A stretch of DNA of 64,000 bases. Source: Dastarcus helophoroides (Eukaryota; Arthropoda; Insecta; Coleoptera; Bothrideridae). This document shows, piece after piece, positions 3,722 to 45,100 of this stretch. The stretch spans positions 30,487,578 to 30,551,577 of the forward strand of contig CM053328.1 of assembly GCA_028583605.1 (NCBI GenBank), written 5' to 3'. Numbering within the stretch: position 1 is the first letter of the stretch; each line of letters starts with the position of its first letter. The notes under the pieces were generated by a model. That model made no database searches. It was not told the DNA's origin and was given only the letters and a program-made list of their open reading frames with translations. The translations under genes were made by a program, and so were the position numbers.

Positions 3722-3831
3722 TATACTGTATAAGTATAATGCCTACTATTAACTTGAACTCACACACCAATGCACACCAATCGCTTAGCTCTCTTGAACT
3801 CGACCGTACACTTCGAGCACTCGAACTAGAC

Positions 3832-7516: not shown

Positions 7517-7522
7517 TTTATT
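7517..7522 (-). terminator. Poly(A) signal of inotocin copy A
   Basis: AATAAA on the minus strand, 48 nt past the stop codon. The same hexamer at the same distance follows copy B, so the 3' UTR was duplicated along with the gene. Confidence 0.75.
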
Positions 7523-7569
7523 TTTACACATTTTTATCCAATTATTACGATATTGTACAGATATCTATC

Positions 7570-10405: not shown

Positions 10406-10458
10406 ATTGTACACAAGAAGTAACTGTCGGAATGATGCTAGCTCTCCAAACTGGATCT

Positions 10459-10468
10459 CCTTTTATAC
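10459..10468 (-). promoter_or_regulatory. TATA box of inotocin copy A
   Basis: Minus strand GTATAAAAGG, about 55 nt upstream of the initiator ATG. An initiator-like TCATTC lies about 30 nt downstream. The element aligns with GTATATAAAAGG upstream of copy B, so the core promoter was part of the duplicated segment. Confidence 0.75.
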
Positions 10469-10659
10469 GCCCTAAGGTTTTCTACGTTACTTTTAGTTTT
10501 CTAAATAAAATTAGATGCACAGATCAGCTTTTTACTTGGAAAGGCAATCGGAATTTTAATGTCCACTTTATGGATTCCCTTTTGTTATGGTAACCAATTC
10601 TTTTCCAGTCATGTGTTTGCCATAGGTATTCTGTATTTGTGAAATGAATATTGCATAAA

Positions 10660-10737
10660 ATGTCTGATTTAGACGATGAGGAGGCCAAGGAGAAAAGAAT
10701 TAATATTATATTCGTGGGTGTAGCCACCATTGTATGG
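10660..10737 (+). pseudogene. Dead copy of Rab28 exon 1
   Basis: 26 codons align without gaps to exon 1 of the full Rab28 gene at 35842 (MSD-DDEE-K---INIIFVG). The P-loop is destroyed: functional GEANIGK reads GVATIVW here. The donor gtatat is gttgtt, and none of the four downstream exons is present nearby. It lies head-to-head with inotocin copy A, exactly as the functional gene lies with copy B, so it marks the upstream part of the segmental duplication. Confidence 0.88.
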
Positions 10738-11477
10738 GTTGTTTTTAACACTGTAAGCGAATGCACTTTTCGTATTTTTGATTGGTCAGTAAAAGAGTTC
10801 ATAAGTGGTATAATAAATATAAATCTTAATGAATTTATTCCGTTTGAAAAAAAAATCAGTTGAAATTAAATACCATCGTATTTCACTGTAATTTTAAATC
10901 TAATTCGTTTAGAGTCATATGCAGAAGTAATTGGGGTAGAAAACTATGTAATGAGTATAAAAATCGAATCCAATAAATGATAGGAATAAGGAATAAGTAA
11001 GATAGGAGGATATGATTAAATAATGCGTTCTTCTATTTCTATGAAATTATGTAGAATTTCATACAAATTCAAATTTCACGTTCTAAACTCGGAATTTTCC
11101 AAACATAATTAAAAAAAAACAAATTTGAGATTTAACTCAAAAATTTTATGTACTCTAAGTTCAGAAATACATACATACAATTTTATAGTTTAAAATGAAT
11201 CTTCAAACAAAATCGAGCTTTAAAAACAAAACTCGAAATTTGAAATAGAAATATGTTGCATTTTTAAATTATAGAAATATCGACTCCCTATTTTCGAAAT
11301 TTAGGTTCTCCTTTCTGAAATTTGACTTCATTTTTCGACATTTCAAGAGATTTAAGTCAAAATTTTTGAAAACAATGAATTCTTGATAAAAATAACTCGA
11401 TATTTCTAGAGAAAATTTCAAGTTTGAAGAAAATTCGAAGTTTTGAAAGAGAAAGGAATTGTAACAAAACTTTTTAC
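10738..11477. other. Flank of the duplicated segment; AT-rich, no gene
   Basis: Homology to the copy B locus fades soon after the dead Rab28 exon (shared actgtaagcga at about 10752 and 35946). From about 11080 the sequence becomes the degenerate aaatttcga-type repeat. Nothing else was recognised. Confidence 0.55.
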
Positions 11478-21121: not shown

Positions 21122-24100
21122 ATGGTGAAAGCTGATGCCAAGGTTAATTTACCATGGTAAGTGTGTTAGCCTAATTCACATTGTATTGCTAATCGTTAAA
21201 TTCCTGTGCAGGGTTGAAAAGTATCGTCCAAGCACACTCGATGATTTGGTTTCTCATGAAGATATAATTACCACAAGTATGTTCGGTTACATTTGAATTT
21301 TACCCTTGCTTACTTATCAATTCCTCTTTTAGTCAGCAAGTTTATTAAAGAGGACCAGCTACCCCATTTACTCTTTTATGGACCACCGGGTACCGGTAAA
21401 ACTAGTACAATTTTAGCCTGTGCTAGGCAACTCTATACACCAGCTCAGTTTTCATCAATGGTAAGTATAAGTGTTTCGTTTAAAGTCTCGTGTTTTCACA
21501 ATACCAATATAATCAAGAAAACTTTTTGTGATGCAGTGAAAAACCTGAGGTAGTTTCAAATGACATTGTAAAAGTAATTTGCACGACATGTTATTCGTGA
21601 TATGTTTGAAAAGACAATAGATAGAATAATGATTTTTTTCCTGTGTAAACGTCTGGGTAAATTTTTCTGAATTTATTTTAATTTTAGGTATTAGAATTAA
21701 ATGCTTCAGATGATAGGGGCATTGGTATTGTTAGAGGGCAGATTTTAACCTTTGCAAGTACAAGAACCATATTTAAATCAGGTTTTAAGCTAATTATTCT
21801 TGATGAAGCAGATGCAATGACTATGGATGCCCAAAATGCCCTTAGAAGAAGTAAGTCTTTGAAATGTTTATCTGTCTCCACAAATTTTGCTACATTTTTT
21901 TTTTTGCATATCTTTCATTTTTACTATGGATCATGCGTGTATCATTTGTAATGAAATAAAAGAATGGTTGAAATACAAATCTTGTCTTCTGAAATCAAGA
22001 AAGATTATCTTTCTTGGTTTCAGAGGACAAGATTTGTATTTCAATTTTTGAAGTTAACCAAAGCCCAGTCCGTTCCACCAAAAAAAAAGATGGTGACAAA
22101 TGTAATAATAAGAATTAAAAAAGTAAAATTGACAAATAAACGATAAATAAAAGGAATGAAATACCTAGAGTGTGATCCATTTGTTTTCGAGTTCCTCTGT
22201 AGATTTTTTATTTAATTTGCGATCTTAAATACATTTTTTTTTTCTTTTAATTTGTGGAGCTTGCACTATATCTAAAATAAATACTTTCAAATGTGCATGA
22301 AATTCAAAGCCTTTTGCTGCACTTTTTAGCAGTAAAATTATAAGTGATACAATCATTTTTTGGAGGTGTTAAGTTAGTGAGTTATTATTTGACATTCGAT
22401 TTGTTAAAGTAGGTAAGTATAATTATGAAGTAAGATTTTAGAGCAGATTGAAGGCTCAGGTGAAACACTCCTGAAATATTTTATGTTCTAATTGTTATCT
22501 ACTTAATAAAACTCTAAACACTGACAGACAATGCACAGCCTAAACTGACGGGTCTTAGAAGTATGAGGTTTGGCACAAGAGTTCCTTATAAATATTATAA
22601 CGTAGGCGGGCAAAAATTTTTGAGAATTCATCTCCCAACGGTGTTAAATAGGGGAAATGGTGTTTAGGTTAAATGGAACCCGTTGTATTAGCGCTTTTGG
22701 CAATTCACCAGCTTAGAAGATACATCTACTCGTAAGATGTGCAATGAATTCATATTTAAAAGTACAACATATGTATGATTTGTGAACCTACATTCGGTAA
22801 TCCATATATTAAGTAGTGAACAGGCTAAAAGCCAATAAAAAATGAATGAAATCAACACAACTTCGCAAAGAAGATGGAGAGAATATCCAAGTTTACAGTT
22901 TGTAAACAAAGAGTAACAAAGGTGGTGTGATGATTATCAGAAGGCAGGTAAAATATTGTTACTTTATAGACACAATTGATCGAGATAAGCACAGACGCCA
23001 AACCGTAATTTTATAAATTAAGTGATACTATATAAGACGTCTTTTTGTAAAATGTCGATATGAATGAAAGATAAAAACATGCAAATAAAATATAATTACT
23101 TTGTCTTAAAGAGCAATGAAGAGGTCGTTGAGAATTCGCTTTTTCGCGTGAAAGTCGGCCGATACCAAGCAAATTGCAGAAAAAAGTTAATCTTAAATAG
23201 TGAACAGTGCAGAATATTTTTTAAAAAAATGTGTGCAAGTGTTGTAAAGTAGCTCTCACTTGAGATATCTTCCGACTATGATAAGATGCGAATGTCTTTG
23301 TGTTATTAAGTGCTATTTACCCGGCGCCATTCCAGGAGAGGGTGCAACACATACGCTTGCACGAGAGGGCAGAAATCATAGGGCGGCATTTTATTTAAGT
23401 TCAAGTCCTAATGAAATACAATTAGACGTGGCTAGCTCTCTCCGGCAGCACAGTATCATTATTTAGAGATATTCTTATTACAAATACGATATTCCAATAT
23501 TTTTCTACGTACATAGATGGCAGAATGCATATGTTTAATTTTTAAGATTGTTTAGTTGCAAATGTTCACAAAAAAATCGACATTTCGAAAAATCGAAATT
23601 TAAAAAATGTGGAAATTTTGAAAAAGGTGTAATTTTAAATTATTGAAATTTTCAAACGTCGAAAATTTCAAAAAAAGTAAATTTTTTTAAATAACTAAAA
23701 ATGTTCAAAAACATGACATTTGCCAAAAGAACGGATTCTTCAAAAAGCTTGAAATTTCGAGAAAAATAAAAGTTGAACGGAAAAAGGATCGAAATTTTCA
23801 AGAACTCAAAACTTCATGAAAGACAAAATTTAAAAAAAAAGGTAGAAAATTTTAAAATACTTTTTAAAAATGCCGAAATTTTGAAAAAAGTTTAAATTTT
23901 GAAAAAGTGGAAATATTCAAAATAAAACAAATATTTTAGAAAAGGATTTTTTTGAAAAGTCTTAGTTTACAGAAAAAAGCACAATTTCGAGGAAAAGATG
24001 AAATTTTGAAAAGTCAAAATTTTCAAATGTAAAATACATTATTTTGAAAAAGGCGAAACTTTGAAAAAAAAAATTAACTCAGAAAGATCTAAAAAAGTAG

Positions 24101-27100
24101 AATGTTATAAAAAAGTTTAAATTTACAAAGAAAGCCTCAAAAAGGTTAATATTTTCAATAAAAGTCAAAATTTTCAAAGTAATGGAAAAATGTCAAAGTT
24201 TGGAGAAAAGTGAAATTTTAGGTTTATTTTACGAAGTTGCGATATTTAAAAAGCTATTTTATTTTTAATTTTTAACAAAATCACATTTTCAAAAACTAAT
24301 TTTTGTAAAAGGTTTGAGGAAGAAATCAATATTTCGAGCAGGAATTAAAATGTTAAGAATGAAACTCAAATTTCTTTGAAAATGTCGACATTTTGAGAAA
24401 ATAATTACAATTTCAAGAAAAAAATCTAAATCCAACTCATCTCGCATTTACTATTTCTCTAAAAAATAAGTTAATACGGTATCTTCGAATTTTTACCTCA
24501 AACCTCATTTTGTATGAAAATTTTGTGTTTTTTTCAGATATTTCGATTTTTTTTAGGAAATTTTGATTTTTTCTGCAAAGTTTCCATTTTTCTTAAATAT
24601 TTTATAAAAAGAAATTTTCTCAAAATTTCCATTTTTCCTGAAAGTGTTGTTCTTAAAATTTCTTCTAAAAATTCCCACTTCTCCAGATTTTTCTTTTTGT
24701 TCCTCTAATTTGCTTTAAAAATGTAAAGTTTTTTACGACACATACAATTTAAAGTTCATTTTATTTTGTAGTTTTGACAAAAAATGTTTGGAAAAAACCC
24801 TGAAAGCTCTATAAAAATTTCAACATTTTGGAAAAAACAAAAAACTTGGACGACTTTTTTGTAAAAGATATTTCAATTTTTTTTTAAATTTCGATTTTTT
24901 CTCCATAAAATTTTGCTTTTTTCCTATGCAATTTGTGTTTTTCTCTAAATATTTTATAGAATTTTTTTTTAATTTCGACTTTTTCAGGGGATTTTGTCTT
25001 TAAAATATTTTTTCTTGTAGAAATTTTGATTTCTCTCTAATTTGTTTTGGAAATTTAAACGTTTTTTAATGACATTTTAATATTGTAAAGTTCATTTTAT
25101 TTTATAATTTTGGTAAAAAACTGAAAATTATTAAGCATTAGTTTAGGGAAAATAAACTTCAAATCTGCATAAAAATAAGAAAACTTTGGAAAAAATATTG
25201 AAATTTCAATAAAAAATAAACCTTGTAAATTTCAACCTTTTTTGATTTATTCTCTAAAAAATTACTACTACTGCAGGACCAAAGAAAATTCTGAATCGAA
25301 ATTTCCAATTTTTTTAGAAATGATAAATTTATTCTGAAATTTTTAAGTTCGAAGTTAAAATTCAAATTTCGATTAAAAAAAAAATCTAAATTCAAATATT
25401 AAACTCAAAATTTTAGAAGAAAGCAGATCATATTTCTAGAAAAAGTTGAAATTTCTTATTACTAAATAACATTTTTTTCAAAAAAAATAACATTTTCGAA
25501 AATAAAGAAAAAAAAATTTTTTCAAATAAATTAATTTTCAAAAATATTCTTATAATTTTGACTTTTAAAGTGGGAATTATTGAAATATTTAAGATAAAGG
25601 TCAACATTTCTAGAAGAGTCCCAAAATTTCGAAATTAAAATTATTCAAAATGTTGAAAAAAATTCATTAACAGTTTACTGTTCTAATTTAATTTTTTTCT
25701 AGTAATTTTGAAGTTCCAGAGAGCTTTCAAAAATCAAATATTCCAGCTTGAAGCCAATTTTTTGTGATTAAAATTCAAATTTTGGCAATTTATTTGTACA
25801 TAAAATGCAAATTTTTAAAAAAAAATTGTTTCAAAACTGCATAATTTTAAAAACAGAAATTTTTGTTATTATTTTTTTAAATTGTGTTATTTTGAATTTT
25901 TTTTGAAAAAAGGTAAATTTAAAACAATACATTACCACTTTTAAGGTTTTAAGGTTATCAGAAAAGTCAAATTTAAAAAAAAGTCAAATCTTAAAAAATT
26001 TTGAAATTTTCATAGAAACTTAAATTTTCAAAAGGAAATAAGGATTTCGAAAAAAATTTTCAATTTTTAAAATGGTCGACATTTTCAATAATTTTGGGAA
26101 TCTGAATAAAAGACGAATTTTTGGAAGAGTTTTTAATTAAATTTTCAGAGAAGCTAAATTATTTCAATATTGAAAAAAACTCAAAATTATCGAAAAATTC
26201 GTAATTACATATATTAATTATAAAATTGAAATTTTGAAAAGGTAAAATTTTGAAAAAGTCGAAATTTTCAATAGTTTAAGTTAAAAAAGAATCTTTTCTT
26301 TTAAGTCGAAGATATAATTGGAAAGGTTTAAAAAATGTATAAATAAAATTTTAAAAAAAGTTCGAACCATTAAAAAGAAATAAAGTTTTCAAAAAGAATT
26401 GAAATTTAAAAAAAAAGTTGAAGTTTTGAAATGGAGTCGACATTTTACGAAATATTAGTCGAAAATTTCAATAAAAGGTTTTAAGTAATGTCTGACTTAA
26501 AAAAAATCACAATTTTCAAATAAAGGATCGACCGATTGCAAAAAATGTCAAATTTTTGAAAATAGTTAAAATTAAAAAAATTGTCAAAATTTTTAAGTTT
26601 TCCAAAAATTTTAAATTTTGGAAAATGACTAAAATTTTGAATAATTCCAGCATTTGAAAAAGGTCGAAATTTTCAACAAAATGGGAATTAAAATAAAAAG
26701 TCGAAAATTTCAAAAAATGCAGATTTAAGAAAAGGTTAAAATTTTCAATAAAGAAAGTCGAAAATTGTTGACAAGGCAAAACTTTTCAAATTTCCAAAAG
26801 AAGTCAAAATTTTGCAAAGGAAGAAATTTTCAAAAAGAAAAAGTAAAAATTTTATAGTCGAAATAAAAAAATATCAAAATTTGCAAAAGATTTGAGAATT
26901 TTTGTCGAATTTACGAAATAATTCGAAATTTTAAAAAAGTTTAAATTTTCAATAGTTTGGAAATTTACTCAACTTTTTAATAAAAATCAAAATTTTCGAA
27001 ACCAGAATATTGAAAACAAGTGAAAATTCTGATAATTTTATAGATCAAAAGTCAAAATATTGAGAAGTTAAAATTTTGGAAAAAGCTTAAATTTTTGGTA

Positions 27101-30100
27101 GTTAAAATTTTAAATCAAAGTGGAACATTTTTTTAAAAAGTTGAAATTTTAGGTCAAAAAATATTAAAATTTTGAAAACATGTCGAACAACGTTTTGTAA
27201 AATTTCAAAATTTTCAAAAAAATCGAAATTTTGAAAGAATTTCGAAAATTAAGAAGTAACGAAATTTTAACAAAACAAAATAAAAAAATAAATGAAACTG
27301 CAAAAAAGTCGAAATTTTGAAAATTACTTGACATTTAAATAAAAAGTAGTCGAAATTATTAAAAATCAACATTTTCAATAAAAAAATTATCATTTTCCAA
27401 AAAAAAAATTATAAACAAAGATGAAATTTAGAAAAAAGTCGAAAATTTTAAAAGTCAAAAGCCAAGTTTTGAAAAAAAGTACATTTTCAGAAAAAGTAAG
27501 AATCTTCAAATGGTAAAAATTAAAAGAAACATGTAATAATTAATTTTCAAAAAAATTACCAAAAAAACTGAACTTCGAAAAGTCTAAATACTTACGAAAA
27601 TACGAAATTTTTAAAAGAGGATTCACAGTTTTTCAGAATAGTCAATACTTAAAAATAAAATAAGGTCGAGGATTACAAGAAAAAAATCTAAATTTTGCAA
27701 TACAGTTGAAATTTGAAAAAAATTCAACCTTTCAAAAAACGCGACATTATCAAAAGTTTTCATTGTCAAGTTTTCAAAGAAATCTAAAATTTTTGAAAAG
27801 TAACCTTTTAAAAATGTCGAAAATTTTCAGTCGAAATCTTAAAAATTTTAAAACGCTGCACCCCATTATTTTTGGCTGCGAGCCCCCACTGACATTCCGT
27901 AACTTATAATATACTCCACATTATAATGCTCGCTATTAAAATCAAAAAATCAGAAAAATATCGATGTATCAATTTCAGTTTTTAATACCGATGTTCGAAT
28001 GATGTTTCATTTAAAAAAAAATGATTTTCTAACATGGACGCTGACATTTGTAATTCTTTTTAAAGAATCTTGTGCCGACAGCTTCGTTCGATATTTAACG
28101 GTTGGCACAAATCTCCCAAAGTACTATTACAAAATTCAAAAATAAATTCTGACCATAGGTGTCTCGTGAAAAAAAGGCGCTTTAAAGTAAAACAATTAAT
28201 ATGTATATTTTCATTTTCCTTTCCGGGGAACAAGCCACTGCTTTTCCTAGAATTTGAGCAATTGCCAAATATGTCAATGAACTGTCCTATTTAAAATTCG
28301 CTTACTTAGTGTGGTAGTTAAAAAAAAAAGGATTAATATGGAAGGAGCTTTAGAAGTATTGATTCATTTAAACTTCCTTATCGTTCAGTCTGGTTTGCAT
28401 TACGACTGACAACATCCTTGAACTTTTTGTAAATATGCAATTTATTAACAATTGTGGGGTACTCAATTTCTTAATGAACAAATGAAATATTGATATTAAG
28501 TAAACCTACAAATCAGTCATCATCCAAACTGCCTTTATTCTTAATTAAAATGACTTGTGTTTGTATGGTAAAGTTTCTATGGCAACGTATGATTTGGTCA
28601 TCTTCGTGTTCGGTAATGAATTACCAAACGCGAAGTTAGTTCAATACCAAACTGCTAATGAATTATGTGGTTAGGTCGCTAAGAGGGATTCGGAACGGAG
28701 AAGGTAAACGATTTTTGTATCTTAAATAAGTTTATTTTGACATATTTTTATCCAATTATTAAGGTCCTGTACAAATTTTTATTTCATTTTTCGTTAACAA
28801 GCTCTGCTTGATAGCTCAGTATATTGTATAGATCTACAGGCGTAAGCCTGTCCGATAGGGTACTTCTTGTCTTTTCCTCGTTGCTGCAACTGGGGTCGGA
28901 ATAACAGGCATCTAAAAAATATCCGAATTATAATAATCATAAACTCATATGCTTGGTAATTTCAATTATTCCATGTTATTAACTAGGAAGGTAGGATGAA
29001 AAGTGTGTTTCTATAAAAAAACTGTTTTTTTTTTGTTGACTCTTTTGAGGAGATATTTTTTCTCAAATTGTCTTTAAACGAAAACACTGCTGATTTCAAA
29101 ACGAACAAAAGGATTAAGTACCATCTTATTCTAAATTTATTAGTTACCTTGGCTGCAACATATTCCATCAGCAGCACACCGTCCTGTATTTTTTCTGCAC
29201 GATGAATTTCCTGCTATGCAAGGATCACGTTCGTGGAAAAATCCTTCTCTTTGGCATTTTATTGTGTCGGGTGTTCCAACGAGACATCCGAAGGGACCAC
29301 AGCATATATTAGGACCGAAACATTGTCCTGTCCTAGCAGGACCGCACGGGATGCACTGAAATTAATAAATAATTCGTATCAACTCCAATAAGCCTACTGA
29401 TGAAGTCTTATTTCTTAAAGGATTAATTATAGAACTTGCTTGTTGAGTTACAGATGTATAATTAGGTTTAATTTGGCTTCCATCCGATGAAATACGAGGG
29501 TTGCTTGACAAGTTCGTGGTCTAAGCTCACAGGGGACGTTGTTGGCAAAATACAGTTTTGTGATTTAGTTGTCCTATCTCTTATAAAGGATGTCCATAAA
29601 TCATCGGAAGAGCTCGCAATGGCAGATTCTTTGCAACATTCAAATACAAAAACCTTAATCCAATTATGTCGACTTTAATCTCGAAATTTTGTTTTCTAGA
29701 CATTTTGGAGTTTTGATGAAAAAAAATTCCAAAAATCTGAAACTAAATAACACGCCCAAACCCAATAATTTAAAAAAAAAGTTTTTCGTCAATTCCAAGT
29801 TTTTCTCAAAAATTCGATTTTTTTTTCGAAACTTCGTCTGAAAATTCGCACAACTTGAATTCTTTTACAAATCTTCGTTTTTTCTCGGAATTTAGACTTT
29901 TATTTTAAATTGGAAGTTTTATTTTCATATTTTTAGGTTTGAAAATTCCAGAAATTTTTTATAAATTTTCCGTTTGAAGTTTGGGTGGAACAGACTGGTC
30001 CTTGGTTATCTTCAAAAATTGAAATACAAATCTTTTTTTGTTTCAGGGAGAAGGTTTACAACGTTTACAGTTGTTATTTTCAGTAAATAATTCGAAAAAA

Positions 30101-33100
30101 AGCTCCGTTTGTCGAAAAATGTCAGAATTTTAAGTTTACTTTGAAATGTTGGCTTTAAACTCGAAGTGTTGAGGCAGAATTTCAGATCCAAATTCGAAAT
30201 TATTACTTTGACTAGGCGTGTTCCCGATGAGATTACATTTCAAGAACCGTTAGACTTTTCTCTAATGTTAAGGTAGTTAATTTTTGGGTAACTTGCTCTG
30301 CGCATGCCCTCCTTTTCACCTCGTGTGTTTTAAATCTTTTTCTTCCCCGGCCGACATTTCTTTTTTGATACATCAAAACCCTTGAATCAGTCAAATTGTG
30401 GTTATAACGTAATGTATTATCAATGTTTTTGGTTCTGCAGCAGAATAAAGACTCTCAATTTTACCGCTGCTTGTTCATAAAAGAAATGCGACAAGCAAAG
30501 TAAATACCGCCGTGCCGAGAATATGTTGTCATGCAGTCAAAGTATATGGTTAACGCGTACAGGCACTTTTAAATACAGTGGTGCATATTATTTATTGCCT
30601 ATCTTGTTTTTAGGATTTCAGTGCCCATTGTGGGCCCTTGGATATTGAATTTTGAAAAATCCAAATATTTTGTTTTAAAATTTGCTTTAGACCGATGCCA
30701 CTTCCCAGGGCCATGCGGTAAATTTTCTCAGTATGATGCAACTCTTCAAAATGCCGCCCCATAAAAGATTTTTCTACTTTTTTTTTTAAATCTTAATTTT
30801 TTTCTCAGAAGTTCAAATTTTTCTCGAAATTTCGACATTTTTTTGAATACTACGAATTTTTACTGTTAAAAATTATGAACTTGCGACATTTTTAAAATTT
30901 CAACTTAAAAAGAAACACTGACATTATTTTTAAAACTTTAAATACTTTTAAAATTTTTGAAAATTTTCACTTCATAATTGGGCCGTTTTTGAAAATTTTC
31001 AGTTTTTCAATATTTCATCTTTTTCTTGAGATTTTTATTTTGTTATAAATTTCGATTTTCTTGGAAGAATTATGCTTTTTTGAAAATATCACTTTTTTAT
31101 AAATGTCGATTTTGAACATTTCGATTCTCGAATTTTCGACCTTTTAAAAGTTTAGACTTTTTTATAATTCTACTCTTTTTTATTTTGCAGTTTTAAATCA
31201 TTTCAATTTTTTTTTAATTTTGACTTAAAAATTGCGATTTTTTAAAAAAATGATACTTTTTTCAGTTTCCACCATATTTGAAAGACTTTCTACTTTTTTG
31301 AAAATGTTAAGTTTCTTGAATATTGACTTTTATTCGAAGTTATGACTTCTTGGAAAACCGCGACTGTTTTTTATGTTTTCACTTTTTTTACAAATTCACT
31401 CTTTTTTCAAAATTTCAACTCATTTTTAAAAATGTCACCTATTTTGAATATTTCCATTTTTTTGAAATTTTCGAAGTTTTTCGACGTATCGTTTTTGCTC
31501 CAGATTTCATCTTTTTTCGAAATTTTGCCGTTTTGAATATTTTGATTTTCTTTTTTTGAATCGACATTTTTGTAATTCCATTTTACTTTTAAATCTAATT
31601 TGAAAATTTCGAATTTTTTTGAAAATATTGGCACTTCTATTGAAAATTTCAAATTAAACAGTTTCCAGTTTTTTCAACATTTCCATCTTTGTTTAAATAT
31701 GACTTGTTATCAAATTTTAGATTATTATAAAAATTTTGATCCTCGTTTTCAACTTTCAAAAATTTTAACTCTTGAAAAATGTTACTATGGACAATTTCGA
31801 CGTTATTGAAAATTTTTGCTTATGATTTTTTTGTATACTTTTTTCAAAACTTCTACTTAAAATTCCTTTCTACTTTATTCAAAAGTTTGACTTTTTTTGA
31901 AAAATTCTACTTTTTAACGGAAATTCAATAAAGACGTTTACTTTTTGTTCAATTTTGATTTTTTTTTAAATTCGAATATTTTAAATTTTAACCTCTTTTA
32001 GGATTTTGAGTTATTTTGAACATTTCAAATTTTCTCAAAAATTTTTATTTTCATAGTTTACTTGTTGGAGGAATTTCTTCTGTTCTGCATGATCTTATCG
32101 ACTTGTAAAAATTTCACTTTTTTTTTAGTAATTTCCACTTTTTGTTGAAATTTCGATCAATTTTCAAAAATTTGATTTCTCAGTTTTCATTTTACTCGAA
32201 GATTTTGAATTTTGAAAAATTCAACTTTTCTGAAAACTTTTGACTAAATTTTTTAAAATTATGTGTCTTTATTTTATTAAAGAATTTTGTCGTTTTGTAT
32301 GGACAAAATTTATTTTTTTTCCAAATTTCGATTTTTCCTTCAAAATGTCATATTTCTCTCCAAATTTTGAAATATTTTCTTTTTAAGTTTTTTGCAATTT
32401 TTTATATTTTCAAAATGTTGATTTTCAAAATTTTGTTCTTTTTCATAATTTTCACTTTTATCAAAAATTCCAACTTTTTTGCAATTTATTTGTTTTTTCA
32501 AAATGTCGATTTTGTAAGTTTTCTTCTTTTTCATAGTTTACACTTTTATCAAAAATTCCAACCATTTTTCAAATTTTCGGCTGCTTTTCAAAATTTAGAC
32601 TTTTTTTTGAAAATTATGTCTTATTTTCGAAATTTCGACTTTTGCTCTACATTTCTAAAAAATTTTTTAATATTTCGGTTTTTTAAAATTCCTTGGTTTC
32701 ATAATTTTTAATTTTTTCATAACGCTACTTTATAAACTTACTTTTTTCAAAATTTTGGTACTTTTTTGAAGTTTTTGAATTTTCTGTTTTTTCAACCTTT
32801 CCAAATTTTGTCTTATGGAGTCAGAATTTAATTTTTACGTTTCTCCTGAATTTTTGACTGTAAGTTTGAATTTTTAAGTTTTTGAAATACTGTTTTCTTG
32901 TTTATCTGATTCCGATTTTTCCATCTTTTATCTCAAAATTTTTCAAATTTCGATTCTTTTTTAAAATTTCTAATTTAGTCTCGAAAATAATAAGAATTGT
33001 AAAATGTAAACTCAGAATTTTGAGAAAAAACGAAAATTTCGAGAAAAAACTCGACATTTATGAAAAAACGATCAAAATTTTTTAGTTTTTTTTTCCTTTT

Positions 33101-36100
33101 CATGAATATCAATTTTATCTCAAAATTTTGTATTTTCTAAACCTTTTTAATTAGCACACAAGTTTTATTTATATTTTTCTTAATTTTCCTCAAAGGACGT
33201 CTTTATTTTTTTTCTTCTGTTTGCAAAATTAGGACTTGATTGACGAGACGTGATTGATTACTTTTTTATTAGATTTAATTTTTTTTAATATTTGCCAGTT
33301 TTATATTTACTAATTTATCTAAATTTTAAATGATTTCAGCAAAATCGCGAGTTTAGGTACGAAATTTTGTCCGTAAAAAGTTCTGCACTTTTTCGGAAAT
33401 CAAATATTGTAATTTAGAAAAAAATTGTATACACTTTGGAATTTTATTTAATTTTTAGCTTAAACTTTTAACAAGAATTGTATCTTCTGAATTAAAAAAA
33501 ACTGTAAAATTTGAACCGCATTTGCCCACCTTTGATATAGAACGATATGGAAAAACGATGTGTAATTTTTTTAAAAATTATTGAATGGCTCAAATTATAT
33601 TTTGATTTAGCTGCTTATGCCGCCCCCTTAAGATGCCGCCTGATGCGGTTGCCTCTTTGCATCATAGCACATTACGCCCATGCCACTTATAATAATAAAA
33701 TTTTCAATAAATAATAAATTTAGACAAAATTATGGTCTACCAACAATACTCTCTATGGGTCAGGTCACGAACTTTTCAAACAACTCGCATATTTATTCTG
33801 TATTTCGTGCGAAGTATTGAACTTTCCAAATTTTGTTCATAAATCATTAATATGTAACCTTTTTGTTGTTTTGTTTTCCTTGAAAGTTGTTTGAGGTTAA
33901 TTAATATTTGATTATTGCACTTTTGCCTGGAACATTTTGTCACCAAAAACTCTTAACATTTATTATACTTTTTCTGTTATATTTTTAATGAATAATATGA
34001 GAAAAGAGTTGTAACTAATTCCTTATTCATGATTAGTACCAAAATTTTCTTCAATCTTCTTTCTGTCGAAAATAGCATACGGATTAGGGTCAAAACTTTT
34101 CATAAAATCGAAACTCGATTTAATATTTCATTGTGGCATTTATCCTTGATAAAATTCGCTTTTAATAACCTGCAAACTAGTACCTATTTCTGAATGTTTT
34201 TATGGTCGATTTACTACATCAAACCACTAACGTCATAGCTTGGTTCGTTTTATAGCCACCTATGTCGTATTTGTTTCAGATACATTCAGAATAATTTCAC
34301 TTATGAATGTTATCCAATTATCTCAGTATACAAAGTTGCTTGCTTAAAAGCTACTCTTCCGAGAAGGTTATTTTTTATTTATTTATTTTATTTTTACTAG
34401 TTTCATTTTTGGGTGATTGTTCCCAAAATTTGGAAAGGGGGTTTCTTTGCGTAATAAACCTCCCTATGTTATCCAACATCTCAGTATAGAAAGTTGCTTG
34501 CTTAAAAGCTACTCTTCTAAGAAAGTTATTTTTAATTTATTTATTTTATTTTTACTAATGTGTAATTTTTTGGTGATTGTTCCTAAAATTTGGAAAGAGG
34601 GGGTTTCTTTGCCTAATAAACCTACATAACTGCTTATTTTTTGATGTACAAGGCGACCTCGGCGCTTGTGACAGTATTATTTTCTTCAGATCTTTTTTAC
34701 AATAGAGATTTTTAGAAACTGGTTGGTTTCTTTAAAGCTGTATTCAAAATGTTGCAACACTAATTCACGAGTCCTAAAACACCCAAACTTATATTATAAT
34801 TTATTTATCTAACGAAGGATTTGTTCTTTACTTACATGCATATGGTCGATGCTACAAATTATGTTGGGGACAGGCAGAACATTTTTATAGAATTTCAAAA
34901 GGGGTCGCTGATTAAATAGACGGAATCTACTGACTTAGAGAGGGCAGACTAACGAAGTATTTATGTCACAGTTTTCCTACAGCACAATCTGCGTGAAGCC
35001 TAACAAAATGTGATACAGTGTCGAAAATTGCCACGAAGCTAACAGTGTATGTCCAAACTTTTTTACCTTGAAGGCTACTTATTCTGCAAAATATAATCTG
35101 CGGACGTCTATGAATATGGACAAACAATTTTAGAATTTTTCAAATTTTTCATAGTGCAACAATTTTAAATTTAAGGGAAAGCAAATTGTTCACTTTAGCT
35201 TTCGCGGGCTACTTTCAAACCTTTGCGGTCGACCGCGGTCAACGTGTTGGCTACCCCTGGCGTATAGTGGTGCTCGTTGAATCTATCACTCAAAGCTTGT
35301 AACTCATCAATACCTTGACATCCGGGGTAACACATATGATATTAGTAGAGGTATCAACTAATAACATACAGAACGTCTCTGTACAGAGCAATAAAATGTA
35401 AGAAAAAATTCAACTTAGGGGTCCCCAAATTGGGAATACTTACGGGCTTTATGCTGTGTTCAGATCTGCCCAATTTCCCGTTGCGTTTGCCCCCAGGGGG
35501 ACAATTTGTAATTAAACAACTATTGATAATATTGTCCCCTATAACCAGTAACAGTACAAGTACGGAAAATACAACTTTCGACATATTGTACACAAGAAGT
35601 AACTATCGGAATGATACTAGTTCTTCAAACGAGAACTCCTTTTATATACTTTAAGATTTCCACGTGGATGTAAGTTTATTTAAATAAAATTAGATGCCAG
35701 ATCAGCTTTTTGCTGGAAAAGGCTATGGAATGTTAACGTCCCACTTTATGGATTTTCCTTTGTTATGGTAACCAATTATTTTTCAGTCATGTGCTGCCAT
35801 ACGTATTCGGTATCTGTGAAATGAATATTGGATAAAATAAAATGTCCGATTCAGACGATGAAGAGGACAAGAATAGAAGGATTAATATCATATTCGTGGG
35901 GGAGGCTAACATTGGAAAGGTATATTGTATCGTTTGTTTTCTGCACTGTAAGCGACCGACTAAATCAGGGGTCGGCAAACCGCGGCTCGCGAGCCGAATG
36001 CGGCTCTTTTAAAAGAAAAGTGCGGCTCTTTAAATTCCCTTAAAAAAATAAATAAATAAAAACTAGAGCAGACAGGCACCCAGACACTCATTAAACAAGT

Positions 36101-39100
36101 GACCTACAGAAGTCAAAATTTCCAAAAATACTTTTCTAGGAATTTTTACGTTTTACTAAAATTTTGACAAGATTTCAAGAAGTAATTTTCCGAAATTTTT
36201 GATTGATTTGTATTAACATGAACACATGAAATTTGAAATTTCTAGAAAAATAACAACTTGGGGAGTCGAAATTTCTAAAAAATATTTTTCTCATGATTTT
36301 TACTTTCTTGTTTGTAAATTTTACAAAACCTTGGGATTTCGTGAAAAAGAGATGAATTACTTTTTGTGAAAAAAAAATCTAAATTTTCAGAAACACGACA
36401 ATTAATTGAAATCCAAAAACTGAAATTTTTAGACAATTTTGAATTTTTTGAAATATAGTAAAATTTCTAAAAGGGAAATTGTAGAAATTAACTGGAAGCT
36501 TAGAAAAAATTATCAATCTCTAAAAAAAGTTAAAGTTTTTCAGTGAAGAAGAAAAAACTTTAATTCTAGGAAGGACTTCATGAAAAAAGTTTAGAACAAC
36601 TCGAAATTTCGATAAAAAATTGCAATTTTCCAGAGAAAGCTAAATTTTGCAATTTCTAAAACAGGACGAATTAAAAAAACTCCAAATATTCATATAAATT
36701 CGAATTTTGAGAAAATTGGTAAAATAATTTTGAAAGAAAATTCCAAGAAAATTTCGAGAAGAGTTGAACTTTAAAAATGATCAAAATTTGCTAGAAAAAG
36801 CCAAATTTTGAGAAAAAGGAAGAGATTTCGAAAAAAACTTGGAAAAATGAAGAAATTTAAAAAAATGAATTTATCTAATTCGGAAAAAGGGAGAAATTTC
36901 GAAAAAAATAAATTTATCCAAAGTTCTCAAAAAAGGCAAACTTTTAGAAAAAAAACGTCGAATTTCGACATTAGATTGAAATTCAAAATAAATTTAAAAA
37001 CCTGAAATTCTTAGAGAATTTTGAATTTTTTGAAAAGTTGCAAAATTTCGAAAAGAGAAATTGTAAGAATAAATTGAAAGCTTAAAAAAAATGTTGAAAT
37101 TTAAAAAAGTCAAAGTTTTTCAGAGAAGAAAAAAAAAGTCGAATTTTAGGAAAAATTTCAAGGAAAAAGTCAAAATTTTAATAAAAGCTCGAAATTTCAA
37201 TAAAAAAAATTACAATTTTCTAGAGAAAGTTAAATTTTGAGAATAGATTTAAAATTTCGAGAACAAGATGATTTAAAAAAAATCCAAATTTTAAGGTAAA
37301 TTCGAATTTTGAGAACATTTGTAAAATAATTTTGAAAGAAAATTTCAGGAAAATCTCGAGAGAAGTTTTTAATTTTAAATAAACGTCAGAATTTCCCAGA
37401 AAAAGCTGAATTTTGTAAAAAAGAAAGAGATTTAGAAAAAAATTGGGAAAAGTGATTTAAAAAAAATGAATTGGTCCAAAGTTCTCAAATAAATAAGTTC
37501 TCAAACATAATAAAATGTCGAATTTTCAGTTAAAAGTTGGAATTTTGAGAAACATCTAATTTTGCGAAACATGTCGAAATTTCCAGAAAATAAATAAAAG
37601 TTTAAGTATTCATTAAAAGTCAATATTTGAGGGTAATAGTCAAATTTAAAAAAGAATAGAAGAATAGAAATGGAATAGGAATTTCGAGATAAAAGTCGCA
37701 ATTTAGAACAAAGTTAAAAAATTATAATTTTGGAAAGAAGTCAATTTAAGAATAGATCTGAATTTCGAAAAAAGAAAATTTGAGAAAAAGATCGAAATCT
37801 TCAAAAACTATTTTATTTAACATCTCCAAATTATTACTTCAAATTTTTACTTCTTTTATTACGAAATCGATAAAAGATGAATTTTTGAGAAATAAGTCGA
37901 ATCTTCCAGTGTTAGTCGAATTAAAAAAAAGTCAACATTTTCACAGATTGTCGAGTTTTGAGAAGAGAGGAAGATTTAAGGACAAAAGTCTAAATACATA
38001 GTTGAAAAAAAAGACGAATACAGAGAAGAGTTAAAAAAGTCGAATTTACAAGAAAAAGGCAAATTTTGAAATAAAGCTCTAAATTATGAGAAATTAAAGG
38101 TCTTTTGGGCTGAATATGTTTTCTTTTGACTACATGAATCAGAGGGGTTCTTCCCTGTCCCATGTTTTGTCTGATTTATTTGATTTAACTGTGAAATAAA
38201 ATGTGAAATTAGAAATAAAAACTTGTGGCTCTTTGAAATTCACGAAACCAATTTTTTCATTGCGAATGGCTCTTTTGGCTTACAATTTTGCCGACCCCTG
38301 GACTAGATAAATAGCATAACAAACTAAAATGTTAATGAATTAAGTACTTTGCTGAGATAATAAGCCTATACACGAATATATACAAGTTTATTACGATGCA
38401 ATTGAAATATAATTTCATTAGAATCTAATGAGAACTAGATTGCAATTGCAAAGTTCACGTAGATGAGGTAAAGCTTGTATCACGGGTTGCATCGCAACAT
38501 CCATTGATACAAACGTCCTCGGCGTGACTTTACTTTCTTCTAGTTCGACAAAGGACCAATTAATTAGCATGTAGCGAAAATGTTTGCGTAATAAACAGTT
38601 AAAAATCAGTTACAAGACACCCAATGGGGGTTTACTCTCTTGGATACTTATACGACTGACTAGCGGCTTTAAGTTGGAAGTGTATACAGCTATCGTACCA
38701 TACTGATGAGGCCAAGAAAGGCCGAAACTAGTCTATGGTTGCGGTTGTAAATAATTTCAATTTTAAGCACGTTTAACTGTTTAATTACAAAACATTTAAT
38801 TGGTCATTTGTCGAATTAAGTACTTTGAAAGAAAAACACTTTTCATAGTTTTAATTGGTTCACATACTAATAGACATTAAACCATTTCAGTCGAGCATTG
38901 TAAGAAGGTTTTGCTTCAATGAATTCTCAAGACAATATACTCAAACCATCGGAGCTGAGTTCTACATTAAACGATTAACTCTCCCAGGCTCTCGAGAAGT
39001 TACCATGAGAATCACCGACGTTGGTGGCTTTGAACTAAGAGGGCCTATGCTTGCTAATTACTTATTTAATACAAATGTACTAATTATAGATTCATATGCT

Positions 39101-42100
39101 CACATCTTATGTAATATAGTTTATTTGTAGATAATAATCATGGTTTTTGACATAACAAATAGTCGAACATTTGATTGTTTATCGGCCTGGCTGGACCAAA
39201 TTTGCAAATTAATGGAAAAGCGACCATTGTGTGCCCTGTTCGGCAATAAATGTAAGCGTAAAAGCGTAACCACGCCAATGAAAATGTGTGTTGTGCGTTG
39301 TATTTAACACAAATTGTTAGGTTACGTCCACGTACTTATTAACTACTGGCTGTCACCGGCAACTTCGCCAACGAACTTGAAATGCAGATGGAAGTTTCAA
39401 AACAATTTTATATTTAAATGAAATTAGAAGTTAATTTTCAGATCAAATTACAAGACAGTAACGTAATAAATAGTTTGAGCACCTAAGAAGAGAGGCCGCT
39501 GTCAAATTAAAGATCACAGAGTTGACATGACTACTTACCTTCTCTAGGATTATTTACAACGTATAAAAAAGGTTGTTTAAGCTTTCTGGATATAAGTTTG
39601 GGATAAAAAGTAACCTACTAAATCGCATCAGTTATTGAACCATGGAAAGCGGACAAACAAACACTTTCGCATTTATATATTAGTTAGGATATAACCTAAT
39701 CTTATCGTCAAAGGTTTCTGCGCTGCATTTGACGAATTTACGAAGCATTCAAGGGGAGTCGGTACAACACAAAACCTATTAGGTCACAAAATAATTCACT
39801 GAACAAAAATCAGTTTCAAAATACAACGCACACCACATATATTCAGCTTAACATAATAAGCACATCGTTACACTAGCAATTCTTACAGCTGACTTGGAAC
39901 ACTACAGGGTGGTTAAATTAACAGAGATTATGCGATTCGTTCACGACAAAGCATTACTACATTATTTAGTTTCAGCTAAAACCGGAGATGGCGTAAGCAA
40001 CTTTTTATTTTCGTAATATCTGATACCATTGAAGGCTCTTTTTAGGTCAACTCAAGTATAACGGATTTTGTCTCAAAGTACTTTGGAGTTTCCCTAAGTA
40101 GCTCTAATGGGGAGAGTAATGGTGTCGTAAAAGTTCCGGTTTCGTTAAAAACAATTAGGCGAAATACTGAGCGTAGCACGTCATCTGTGTGCTCTATCCA
40201 ATAATTTTCTATTTTTATAAGTGCAGACTACTATATTTTGTACCGCTATTACTAGAGAGTAGTTTTGACATTCTTTTAATGATAATTTTGTATATTTTTA
40301 TAAATATACGAATTTTAAACACATATTTGGGTATTGTTTTTGCATACACTACTCCTCTTTTGAGATTAATTTTTAGAAATTTCGATATTTTTGTCTTAGT
40401 TTCGATTTTTTCTAGAAATATCAGTTTCAAAATGAAAATTTGGATTAATGGTCCCCAAACTGTGCGTCGCGGTATCATGGGGAATAACAGTTAGGCTACA
40501 AGGAAGCCGCAAAATATTTCAATGCTCGTACCGACCTTGTGCAATAGTTAGGTTAAATTTTGTTGTACAGTAAAACCTCGCTTAACGCGGGGCTTACGTT
40601 CCAACTAAGTAGAGCGTTATACGAAACAGCGTTAAACGAGGTCATCTCATCATGTACATAATGGGGTTACGGAAAACACGGGTGTAAAAAGCAAGTCACC
40701 ATTCATGTTTAGATCATTCGGATTCTTCTGCATTTCCAATTTTCCGCTTTCTCATCAAGAAGGCGCCTAATGTCATTTGTATTTTTCTTGAGTGCCCTAT
40801 AAGAAGTTGTCAACATGTGGGAAAGGCATCGATGGCACCTTGTCTTGCCGTTGAACTCCTCATTTTCAATAAATTGGTTTATAATTTCTGTTCTAGTGGC
40901 TAACCTGGGTTTTAGAAATGCCACTTAACATTTTTTTTGTTCTTCAGAATCACTATTCTTAATATTTTTGGGTTGTTCTTGATCCACTATTTCCTTGGGC
41001 TCATTAGTCAACATTTCTTTGAGGATCTTCCACATTTCTAAACCTGTTTGTTTTGCTAATTCGACTATTTCCGTTCATATCAACAGAGTATCTAATGTCA
41101 CCGTCCTCGTTTAGATCTTGCCAAATATTTTTACACACTCCGTTCAAACCTTTTTTCGTAACCTCATCTCATTATTCCAAGCGTTAAACCGAAACAGCGC
41201 TAAACCGAAAGCAGCGTTTAGCGGAGTCTTACTATATTATTGACATTTCAGGAAAAAGGTGAAATTTGCAAGAAATACATCTAGTAGAAATTTCCAAAGA
41301 AAATATTTTTCCTGAAATTATTGCTGCTTTTATTACAATGTCAACCTAATTTCAAAAGAAATTTTGGAAATAATCATGAACTGGCAACGAATTATGACAA
41401 AAAATTTACATTTTAAAAATGTGTTTTCTATAATTTTCACTTTTTGGTTTACATTTTGACACTTTTCAAAGTTACTGAGAAAAATTACCCATAGTGCAAT
41501 ATTTTTCTCGATATTTTTAATTTTTTTAAATAAAATTTTGAACTATTTTAAGAGAAAATAGAAAAAGAAGGCAAAGAAAGAAATCGAAATTTGCAGAAAC
41601 GGAAAATGTCGAATTTCTAGTGGTCAATTTCCCAGAAAAAAATCAAGTTTTAGGAAGAATAAAAAAAATAACAAATCTGAAAGGAAAAAAAATCGGAATT
41701 TTAAGTTAAAATTTAACATTTCAAGAAAAAAGGTCTGATATTTCTGTAGAAGGTCAAATTTTGGAAAAAAAATGAGATTGTGAAATTACGACTTTTGAGA
41801 ATCAAAATTCGAACAAAAGATTAATTTCAGAAAGATTGAATTCCGAGAAGAATAAGACATTTTCAAAAAAAAAAAAGATTTTACAAAAAAAATCTTGAAC
41901 TTTCCAAACAAGCCCCTACTTAAAAACAGATGATACCTCGGAGAAAGTCAACTTTGAAGGACAAAGTCGAATTTTGATGATAAGGTCAAACTTTCCAAAT
42001 TTTCTTAAAATTGAAAAATTTCGACGATAAAGTGGAAGTTTGCATTTCGAAAATATTTGGAAAAAAAGCAAATTTTGGGAAATAAATTGTTTTCAGAAAT

Positions 42101-45100
42101 TAGATATTAAAAAGGTCGATTTGTAGACAAAGTAGGAAAAACATTTCTTTAAAAACAACAAATTTTGCGAAGAAAGTCGAAAAGACAAACATATAGAAGA
42201 GTCGAAATTTCCTGAGAAAGTCAGAATATGAAATAAATAGAATTTTTAATTAAAGGGTTGACCATGGAGAATAAAATCAATATTTCAAAAAAAATGCGAA
42301 TTCAGACAAATTCGAAGTTTCGAGAAAAAAAGTAAAATTCCCAGAAAATTCGTTTTCGATATTTTTTATTTTTGAATAAAGCTTCGACCTGTTTTTGAGA
42401 AAAGAGAAAGGGGATTTGAAATAAAATCGAAATGTTGAATCGAATTTTGAGATAAAAGTCGACTTTTCCAGAAGAAGTCATCTGTGAAAAATAAAAAATT
42501 CGAAATTTTAAGTTAAAATGCACCACATTGAGAAAATGATTAAATCTTTCAATAGAAAGTCAAATTTTGATGAAGAAAAATTCTTTTTCAATAAAACGTT
42601 GAAATTTTGAAATAAGAACGAATTTTCAGGATCGAAGTTTCGAGCAAAAGACCAGTTAGAAAAACGTCGAATTTTAAGAAAAATGTGGAATTTTTAAAAA
42701 TAGACGAATGAAAAACGACTGAATTTCTGGAAAAAGAGCAAATAGACGATTATATTCCTCAAATAAAGTCAACTTTTGAGAAAAAATACGAATTTGGAAA
42801 AAAATGTGGAAGTCTAGAATTATAATGGTTGAATTTCATGAGAAAATTGAAAAATTTTGGGAAAAAACAAATTTTGAGAAAGAAGGTGTTTCCAGAAATG
42901 TGGATATAAAGAAAATGTCGATATTTAAGCGACGAATTTTCAAAAAAAGACGGATTTTATAAACGTAGCGAAATTTTAAGAAAAAAAATCAATATTTCGA
43001 GAAAAAGTCCAACTGCCTTGAGAAGGTCAAATTTTGAAATACAGTCGACTTCCGCTAAAGTGGCGCCCTTTAAAGTTGTACGCGCGTTAAAGTTGTGAGG
43101 ATAAGACCGTTGAAGTTGCGCAGATATCCCTCCACTCTAATTTTCGAAAACGAATTGGACTTCTGAGTTTTAGCGCCACTTTTAAGTAACCCACCCAACC
43201 GTGCAAGGAACAATAAAGCGTATATATTTTTCGACTTTAACGGTCAATCCTGTACGGTGAGCGCAATTTTAGCGGGAGTACGACTGTAAATAGAATTATG
43301 GAATAAATCTTTGAGGACAAAATCACAATTTTAAAAATAGACGCATTTTGAAAAAAAATTGAAATTTTGAGCAGAAGAATTTGGATATGAAAATAATCGA
43401 AATTTCAAGAAAAAAAGTCCTCTTGGCTGAATTACATATATTTAAAACATTGGGGGAGGGGGGAAGAAATTAGAACATTGCAGTATTTTGTTTGCATGAA
43501 GTTAGTTAAATCTGCTTACTAATGAAACGGTCTCAAAATTATGTACTAAGCCTATCTTGGCAACATCGAATTTATCATGAAAAGGAGGTCGTCAGGAATA
43601 AAAATTTGAAAAAGTAAAAAGAAATACTGTAAAATTTTCCATTTATAATCAAATTTTATTATATAAATTAAGACTTTTCGACAAAAGTAATTTATGTTTT
43701 TTTTTAGTCATTGAAAAGTACACAGAAAACATAAGATTTTGTATAATTTGTAATTATCTTGGAAAAGTTATACCAGCTCTTCAATCTCGGTGCACCAGGT
43801 TTCGATTTGGACCGTTGTCTCCAGAGCAAATATTACCGAGATTAAATTACGTCATAGAACAAGAAAAGTAAGTTTTTTTTTACTACATGCGCTCTTAAGA
43901 TATTTTATTTAAATTCCTAAATATGAATCCAAAAACTAATTACGAGTCAAATATTTCCGGAATATTATTATATTAAAAAAACTAACAAGGAACATTTTAA
44001 TCTACTTAATAAGATCTTCAAAGTAGTATTGTGACACTATACACTTATCCCATAGCTCATGCCGAGCATGCAAGAAAAGAAAAACATCTGTTGGATTTGG
44101 AGTAAGATCTGGGGAGTAGGGGAGGCGTTCAGCGTTTCTATGTGATTCTGCCCCAGAAAGTTCTGCACAACTGCCGGCGCCCACAGTCCAAGTCCATTTT
44201 TCCAGAAGTTTGCGATGCACATTTTCTTTTACTCTGAACAATGCCATGATCATGTGTCGAAGAGTACAATCAGCATTCACTTCATATAGGATTTGACCAT
44301 CCGAGCTTTTTTGAGACGAGGTTTCTAGGAAATTTCCACTGCGACAATTCCTTTTTGGTTTTTCCTAGTTTGGCAAAATTTAATGCATACACGTTGTTCT
44401 ACTTGTACTGAAACAAAAACTTCTGTTTACGCACTTAACAGAGCTGCACACTATATCCGTCTAATCTTACAGTGTACATAGCTCGAACATAGACTCTGCA
44501 GTGGCAGATCGTGGTAGTACAACTGGTTCCGGAAATTTTTGACTCCTACCTCGTACATACTTCTTTTAGAACAATTTCCCGTCTATTGATCTGATTAGAA
44601 GTTTTTTTCAACAAACAAATTTGTCAGCTTATGGAGATATATTACGAGGGCAAGTCAAAAATTATCTACACTTTTGACATAACTCTGCCTAAATTGTGCA
44701 CACTCACTTGTGTCCGCGCTTATTTTATTATTATACTGTTGTGGTCATGCTATAAAAGTTTAATCCAAATTGCTCCATTTGTCTTCCTTTTGTCAGAGGT
44801 AGATCAGGGCTGCTCCAAGTTTGCACCAAAAATGAACAACGAGCAGTGATCTGCTTCCTCTGGTCAGAGGGTGTCAAAGGGTCAGACTATCACCGCAATA
44901 TGGGGGAAGTGCACTATCACGAAAAACTATGTTCTTGTGGATCGAGAAGTTTAAAAGTGATCGAACAAATGTAACACATGAAGAAGGGGCAGGATGGCCA
45001 TCAACCTCCACTACAGATGACAACATCCAGCGAGCTCGAGAGATGGTTCTGCTATGCGAATTACTGTGGGGAATGTAGCATCTGCTTTGAATATCAATCG

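What the first reader, a model, noticed from the sequence alone, without database searches (positions are those of the whole stretch)
28784..35584. A second, intact inotocin gene encodes a Pro8 variant hormone (CLITNCPPG)
The sequence shows two complete inotocin precursors with identical exon sizes. Copy A encodes the canonical insect hormone CLITNCPRG; copy B has Pro in place of Arg8. Position 8 governs receptor selectivity in this family (basic in vasopressins, neutral in oxytocins). Pro8-oxytocin occurs naturally in some New World monkeys, so this would be an independent parallel in an insect. Losing the basic residue would change the peptide from vasopressin-like to oxytocin-like in charge. 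Insects are generally described with a single inotocin gene.
Basis: partly seen in the sequence, partly recalled or inferred. Interest (0 to 1): 0.92.

Follow-up and report, generated by a model that had tools for sequence, protein, structure and literature searches.

The report
Beetle second inotocin gene, Pro8 hormone
This beetle carries two intact copies of its oxytocin/vasopressin-type hormone gene close together; one encodes the usual insect hormone and the other a version with one changed residue, a new example of a known kind of gene duplication.

Summary
Copy B (28784-35584, minus strand) is a complete three-exon inotocin gene encoding [12 protein letters not shown] plus a 14-cysteine neurophysin; copy A (7570-10405, minus strand) encodes CLITNCPRG. 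They are paralogues, not alleles: both lie on one 44.2-Mb contig, 51 of 477 coding bases differ, and dN/dS is about 0.04-0.055. Core promoter, splice sites and a poly(A) signal are kept in both. A DNA search with exon 1 found these two places only in the genome; a receptor search found one clear vasopressin/oxytocin-type receptor exon.

A carries only a broken relic of Rab28 exon 1. So B is probably the parental locus, and the canonical hormone now comes from the daughter copy.

The novelty is narrower than claimed. Pro8 is the commonest non-canonical arthropod form (CFITNCPPG), and Leptinotarsa already has two inotocin genes differing at position 8. CLITNCPPG itself I did not find in the full-text searches made, nor among 58 Leu2-type precursors. 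No expression or receptor data were available. Verdict: a new variant of a known kind, moderate interest.

The parts
35444..35584 (-). inotocin copy B exon 1: signal peptide, [12 protein letters not shown], start of neurophysin linker
29148..29355 (-). inotocin copy B exon 2: neurophysin core
   Evidence: Pfam Hormone_5 1.5e-21 on the whole precursor
28784..28911 (-). inotocin copy B exon 3: neurophysin C-terminus and stop
10265..10405 (-). inotocin copy A exon 1 (CLITNCPRG)
8465..8672 (-). inotocin copy A exon 2
7570..7697 (-). inotocin copy A exon 3
35585..35841 (.). divergent intergenic region of copy B (inotocin ATG to Rab28 ATG) with TATAAA at -64 and initiator-like TCATTC at -30 from the inotocin ATG; 202/252 identical to A
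10406..10659 (.). matching region of copy A with TATAAA at -62 and TCATTC at -30
35842..35919 (+). Rab28 exon 1, open up to a GT donor (further exon matches 38921-39088, 39140-39250, 39888-40001)
   Evidence: no other Rab28 found in the genome
10660..10745 (+). broken relic of Rab28 exon 1 beside copy A: a 13-base gap removes the end of the P-loop and the splice donor; homology with B ends about here; no exon 2-4 match nearby
21204..49320 (+). RFC5 gene (matches 21204-21275, 21323-21463, 21688-21849, 43707-43868, 45627-45830, 49028-49111, 49168-49320); copy B and Rab28 lie between 21849 and 43707
35323..35443 (-). 5' end of intron 1 of B, 111/121 identical to A 10132-10264, higher than the other non-coding blocks

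Best explanation
A block of about 3.3 kb (as measured at A) holding the inotocin gene, its divergent promoter and the first exon of Rab28 was duplicated within the RFC5 neighbourhood of a beetle. Copy B stayed at the parental place (intact Rab28 next door); copy A is the daughter with a broken Rab28 relic. Both copies are working genes that have been kept by selection for a long time (dS about 0.44-0.59). B's precursor is most likely processed as usual (signal peptide removal, cleavage at KR, amidation from the Gly after Gly9) to cyclic [11 protein letters not shown]2, a neutral-tail inotocin without the Pro-Arg site, released alongside or instead of CLITNCPRG-NH2 and acting on the one vasopressin/oxytocin-type receptor found, with changed potency or lifetime and/or a different expression pattern. 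Shown: gene structure, paralogy, constraint, the changed residue, Rab28/RFC5 anatomy, one clear receptor exon. Inferred: direction of duplication, transcription, processing, receptor effect.
For: Gene models and constraint; TATA, initiator-like and poly(A) signals kept in both copies; A and B form a pair with 99/99 support and 96% identity, against at most 68% to the other beetle precursors over comparable length; Rab28 relic at A and the only Rab28 found at B; inotocin and RFC5 share a longest-contig length in 14 of the 21 taxa tabulated, consecutive tags in Photinus, so this looks like the old beetle locus; one V1a/V2/OXTR-like receptor exon, the next two GPCR exons hitting GnRH receptors first. 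Literature: Leptinotarsa transcribes both of its genes and has one receptor; D-Arg8 in place of Arg8 changes potency at the Tribolium receptor from 0.35 to 12 nM without abolishing activity.
Against: No transcript or peptide data. Pfam's nine-residue Hormone_4 model reports A but not B at E 0.001. B's second donor is GTAACT rather than GTAAGT. At the two amino-acid differences that can be polarised (30 and 50) B holds the rarer state, and B's end branch is longer (0.033 vs 0.014), compatible with mildly relaxed constraint on B. A larger duplication with later loss of Rab28 at A would leave the parental copy undecided. In 7 of the 21 tabulated taxa, and in the wasp Diachasma, inotocin and RFC5 do not share a contig length. 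A protein-level search of the genome for a third precursor did not complete.
Confidence: 0.72

Rival explanations
1. Redundancy or dosage: both genes are expressed in the same neurons and Pro8 is nearly neutral at the receptor, so B only adds quantity.
For: Dosage was proposed for the amplified Locusta genes; promoter and 5' intron are kept in both copies; the neurophysin core (exon 2) differs at one residue.
Against: Position 8 is Arg in 54 of 58 Leu2-type precursors examined, so it appears to be under selection in insects; only copy B departs from it.
Confidence: 0.2
2. B is a decaying copy: still open, but its hormone is inactive or hardly made.
For: Both polarisable amino-acid differences are derived in B; longer B branch; intron 2 donor GTAACT; longer intron 1 (6088 vs 1592 bp).
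Against: Seven non-synonymous codons against 34 expected without constraint, no stop, splice sites, 14 Cys, TATA/initiator and poly(A) signals kept at dS about 0.5.
Confidence: 0.06
3. The two copies are alleles, a haplotig or an assembly error.
For: None found.
Against: Same contig, different flanks, 11% coding divergence, 16-35% divergence in the non-coding blocks other than the 5' end of intron 1 (8%), three-base codon change.
Confidence: 0.02

Closest known systems
Leptinotarsa decemlineata inotocin pair (CLITNCPKG and CLITNCPIG; PMC5153645, PMC6585902)
   Same: Beetle, two inotocin genes, one with a neutral residue 8, one receptor in the genome; both transcribed (652 vs 341 reads).
   Different: Residues are K8 and I8, no canonical R8 copy reported; a separate duplication (window A/B pair together with 99/99 support). 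Two database models share one exon 1 with different neurophysin exons (P0014, P0017).
CFITNCPPG of crustaceans, myriapods, chelicerates and basal hexapods (PMC5153645, PMC7181382)
   Same: Pro8 followed by Gly-amide, same precursor layout.
   Different: Phe2, not Leu2; usually a single gene rather than an insect paralogue.
Canonical beetle inotocin CLITNCPRG (e.g. Zophobas, Tenebrio)
   Same: Zophobas precursor 68% identical, same layout.
   Different: Arg8; all beetles in PMC6585902 except Leptinotarsa have it.
Locusta vasopressin-like gene family (PMC4237046)
   Same: Amplified inotocin genes with conserved promoter and first exon.
   Different: About 6-8 copies with the same peptide; later exons poorly conserved.
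Pro8-oxytocin of marmosets (PMC6820730, abstract)
   Same: Proline at position 8 of a nonapeptide of this family.
   Different: A change in the oxytocin ligand itself (Leu8 to Pro8); different ring (ring letters recalled).

Membership tests
inotocin / oxytocin-vasopressin precursor | Signal peptide followed directly by a Cys1-Cys6 nonapeptide CX4CPXG | tested here: met
   B...[12 protein letters not shown]. The signal peptide was judged by eye; no predictor was run.
inotocin / oxytocin-vasopressin precursor | Gly-Lys-Arg amidation and cleavage signal after Gly9 | tested here: met
   GGKR in both copies
inotocin / oxytocin-vasopressin precursor | Neurophysin domain with 14 Cys | tested here: met
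   Pfam Hormone_5 1.5e-21; 14 Cys in A and B
inotocin / oxytocin-vasopressin precursor | Pfam Hormone_4 nonapeptide model | tested here: inconclusive
   A 19.6 bits (cut-off 17.1); B not reported at E 0.001. The model is nine residues long.
inotocin / oxytocin-vasopressin precursor | Three coding exons | tested here: met
   141/208/128 nt in both
inotocin / oxytocin-vasopressin precursor | Expressed in neurosecretory cells, amidated peptide present, activates a VP/OT-type receptor | not testable with these tools
   no transcriptome, peptidome or assay
canonical insect inotocin CLITNCPRG | Arg at position 8 | tested here: not met
   CCT Pro in B; met by A

The most novel reading that the evidence does not exclude
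In a beetle lineage the parental inotocin locus gave the canonical hormone over to a daughter copy and evolved a second, Pro8 hormone ([11 protein letters not shown]2), giving a two-hormone, one-receptor system: a second independent beetle case beside Leptinotarsa and a recent natural replay of the tandem duplication that produced vasopressin and oxytocin in vertebrates.
Probability: 0.35. Interest if true: 0.62.

Novelty: new variant of a known kind. Interest (0 to 1): 0.47.

Why it matters
Invertebrates are typically described with one VP/OT-type hormone and one receptor (PMC7181382, passages). A species with both the canonical and a changed hormone, nearly identical carriers and apparently one receptor would be a clean natural test of what residue 8 does in insect signalling and of how a duplicated hormone is kept. 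The parental/daughter asymmetry and the repeated loss of the basic residue in beetles (Ile8 in Leptinotarsa, Thr8 in Cryptolaemus, Pro8 here) suggest that position 8 is freer to change in this order than the single-hormone picture implies.

Tried and rejected
Rejected: alleles or assembly error (different flanks, 11% coding divergence, three-base codon change); chance motif; a shared origin with the Leptinotarsa duplication (separate pair in the tree); a third copy in the window.

Led nowhere: naming the species or family. RFC5 (highest identity in the list 92%, Aromia) and inotocin (68%, Zophobas, over most of its length; a 99-residue fragment P0065 of unnamed origin reaches 73% over 46%) trees leave it unplaced among the beetles in hand, none of which is from outside Polyphaga as far as I know their names. 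A search for the conserved intron block in relatives was not possible: the whole-genome tool says this genome has no relatives there, and I saw no other collection here that holds beetle DNA. A whole-genome search with the B precursor as protein and one with PF00184 did not complete, so 'two copies' rests on the exon 1 DNA search. Receptor number rests on one exon; the only other close match is a 75-base, 93% identical fragment on C5 with an in-frame stop. Structure prediction was not used: a changed residue in a nine-residue peptide tail would not be informative.

Full report
What is there. The window (64 kb, 31.8% GC) is part of a 44.2-Mb contig of a 538.9-Mb, 50-contig assembly. Two complete inotocin genes lie on the minus strand about 18 kb apart. 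Copy A (10405-7570) encodes MSK...[15 protein letters not shown]..., copy B (35584-28784) the same with CLITNCPPG. Both have exons of 141, 208 and 128 nt, 158 residues, 14 neurophysin cysteines and GT/AG splice sites. Pfam assigns Hormone_5 to both (1.5e-21 and 1.3e-21); the nine-residue Hormone_4 model reports A and Zophobas but not B at E 0.001, which a changed residue would explain but which is a miss all the same.

More than chance, and kept by selection. 51 of 477 bases differ (37 transitions, 14 transversions), 40 of them at third positions; seven residues differ. dN is 0.019-0.024 and dS 0.44-0.59 by four methods. Random placement of 51 changes gives 34.1 non-synonymous codons on average, never as few as 7 in 20,000 trials. 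If either copy had been free of constraint for its half of the divergence, roughly half of that expected number should show; so both have been constrained for most of the time (inference). Codon 30 is AGA in A and CCT in B: three substitutions, of which one changes the amino acid if the path ran through CGN and CCN (inference).

Regulatory parts. Both copies keep TATAAA at -62/-64, TCATTC (initiator-like) at -30 from the ATG, and AATAAA 48 bases after the stop codon. Identity is 84% in the 75-bp core promoter, 80% in the intergenic stretch to the Rab28 ATG, 65-76% in the other intron ends and the 3' flank, but 91.7% (111 of 121) in the first part of intron 1, above the pooled non-coding rate of 414/536 (binomial 2.4e-5, uncorrected; seven non-coding blocks were looked at, one nested in another). 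The reading frame runs on there in both copies, but five residues differ, so this looks like a conserved non-coding element rather than protein.

Anatomy of the duplication. The shared block is A 7409-10745 and B 28633-35935. Divergently from inotocin B starts Rab28: exon 1 35842-35919, further exon matches to 40001; the joined translation has Rab-28 as its best solved relative (2hxs, 1.3e-30). Beside A only Rab28 exon 1 remains (10660-10731, 75% identical over 24 residues), with a 13-base gap that takes the end of the P-loop and the splice donor; none of exons 2-4 is matched near A. In the genome, Rab28 exons 2-4 match the window's copy and otherwise only sequences at 36% identity or less (the 18 matches). 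Inotocin B and Rab28 sit between RFC5 exons, in an intron of 21.9 kb (21849-43707; best solved relative Replication factor C subunit 5, 2e-110). The simplest reading is that B is the parental place and A the daughter, so the canonical hormone is now made by the daughter. A larger duplication followed by loss of Rab28 at A would also fit.

Old locus, later split. I tabulated 21 beetle and lacewing taxa whose names appear in both the inotocin and the RFC5 result lists; in 14 the two proteins have the same longest-contig length (13 beetle taxa and the lacewing Chrysoperla; some of these contigs are chromosome-sized, so only linkage is shown), with consecutive tags PPYR_12571/12572 in Photinus; in 7 they differ (Coccinella, Cryptolaemus and five weevils). 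One more pair left out of that table, the wasp Diachasma, differs too. A and B group together with 99/99 support at 96% identity, against at most 68% to the other beetle precursors over comparable length; a 99-residue fragment reaches 73% over 46% of the query (P0065). Of the seven differing residues only two can be polarised: position 30 (R in 22 of 28 others) and 50 (S in 19 of 28), both derived in B.

Census of position 8. Of the 121 precursors in hand after two searches (the best 120 of 260 listed, plus P0028, which the second list did not show), 118 show a nonapeptide; the other three are partial or matched elsewhere. Fifty-eight are Leu2 types: 54 Arg8, 2 Ile8 (Leptinotarsa), 1 Thr8 (Cryptolaemus), 1 Lys8 (Cylas, with Asn7); none Pro8. 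Pro8 occurs in 15, all Phe2. The other 140 proteins were not shown, and clusters at 90% identity can hide variants: Leptinotarsa's Lys8 form did not appear.

Receptor. A 75-residue fragment of the human oxytocin receptor (typed from recall) finds one strong exon in the genome, C6:37497430-37497648, 52% identical, E 3.3e-19; the next is 35%, 4e-9 (10 matches). The first has V1a, V2 and oxytocin receptors as its best solved relatives, the second the GnRH receptor. Searching with the beetle exon itself (9 matches), the next intact match is 39% identical (C5:32445749) and hits GnRH receptors before V1a; the only closer one is a 75-base, 93% identical fragment with an in-frame stop. So one receptor is likely, judged on one exon.

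What is known. PMC5153645 (first of five parts read, passages and Table 1 seen) reports 21 different arthropod peptides, among them CLITNCPRG (57), CFITNCPPG (32), CLITNCPKG (8), CLITNCPIG (2); CLITNCPPG is not in the table. It reports two precursors in Leptinotarsa, Atelura and Scolopendra and three in Calanus. PMC6585902 (passages) finds CLITNCPRG in all beetles studied except Leptinotarsa, whose two genes are both transcribed and share one receptor. PMC4237046 (passages) reports 6-8 Locusta copies with a conserved first exon and promoter. PMC5286520 (passages) gives EC50 0.35 nM for inotocin and 12 nM for the D-Arg8 form at the Tribolium receptor and notes that the Pro-Arg bond is a trypsin site, which Pro8 would remove. 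PMC6030093 (passages) held nothing on residue 8. PMC6820730 (outline and abstract) covers Pro8-oxytocin; PMC7181382 (passages) lists Pro8 peptides across protostomes. Full-text searches for CLITNCPPG and its substrings returned no paper holding it (40 of 70 papers listed, all 7, 15 and 18 papers listed); supplements and most subscription papers are not in that library.

Most likely working. Normal prohormone processing to an amidated, disulfide-closed CLITNCPPG, carried by a neurophysin whose core (exon 2) differs from A's at one residue, acting at the shared receptor with altered potency or lifetime, or in other cells. Gene, paralogy and constraint are shown; expression, processing and pharmacology are inferred.

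Noticed in passing
10132-10264 and 35323-35443: First part of intron 1 is 111/121 identical between the copies, above the other non-coding blocks; possible conserved intronic element.
   Followed up: partly
38921-39088: Rab28 of this beetle has DVGGF where the solved Rab-28 (2hxs) has DIGGQ in the G3 motif, i.e. the usual glutamine is missing (motif name recalled).
   Followed up: no
29356-35443; also e.g. 18475-18525, 24518-24591, 42658-42694, 51063-51125: Intron 1 of copy B (6.1 kb) holds many stretches of a degenerate AT-rich repeat of about 19-20 bases (TTTTTCAAAATTTCGACTT-like); similar 19-20-base arrays occur elsewhere in the window.
   Followed up: partly
3831-4963, 12937-14060, 45871-48440: Repeated pieces of a non-LTR-like retrotransposon; endonuclease and reverse transcriptase domains at 45871-46380 and 46752-47273, another RT domain at 61440-61706 minus.
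   Followed up: no
44639-44840 and 45159-45366: Inverted repeat pair (84%) inside the RFC5 gene around a fragment that looks mariner-like (the label is recalled, Pfam gave no hit).
   Followed up: no
58004-58231 and 63159-63383 (minus): Exons resembling a metallocarboxypeptidase (CarboxypepD_reg 30.7 bits, cut-off 32.3; solved relatives LP15968p and carboxypeptidase M), a type that includes prohormone-processing enzymes (recalled), near the hormone genes.
   Followed up: partly
P0014, P0017 (Leptinotarsa): Two database 'isoforms' share an identical Ile8 exon 1 region with different neurophysin parts, suggesting tandem copies merged into one gene model or shared exon use.
   Followed up: no
P0002 (Cryptolaemus), P0020 (Cylas): Further unusual beetle hormones: CLITNCPTG and CLITNCNKG.
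   Followed up: no
L016 (C5:21272455-21272535): 75-base fragment 93% identical to the receptor exon with an in-frame stop, elsewhere in the genome.
   Followed up: partly
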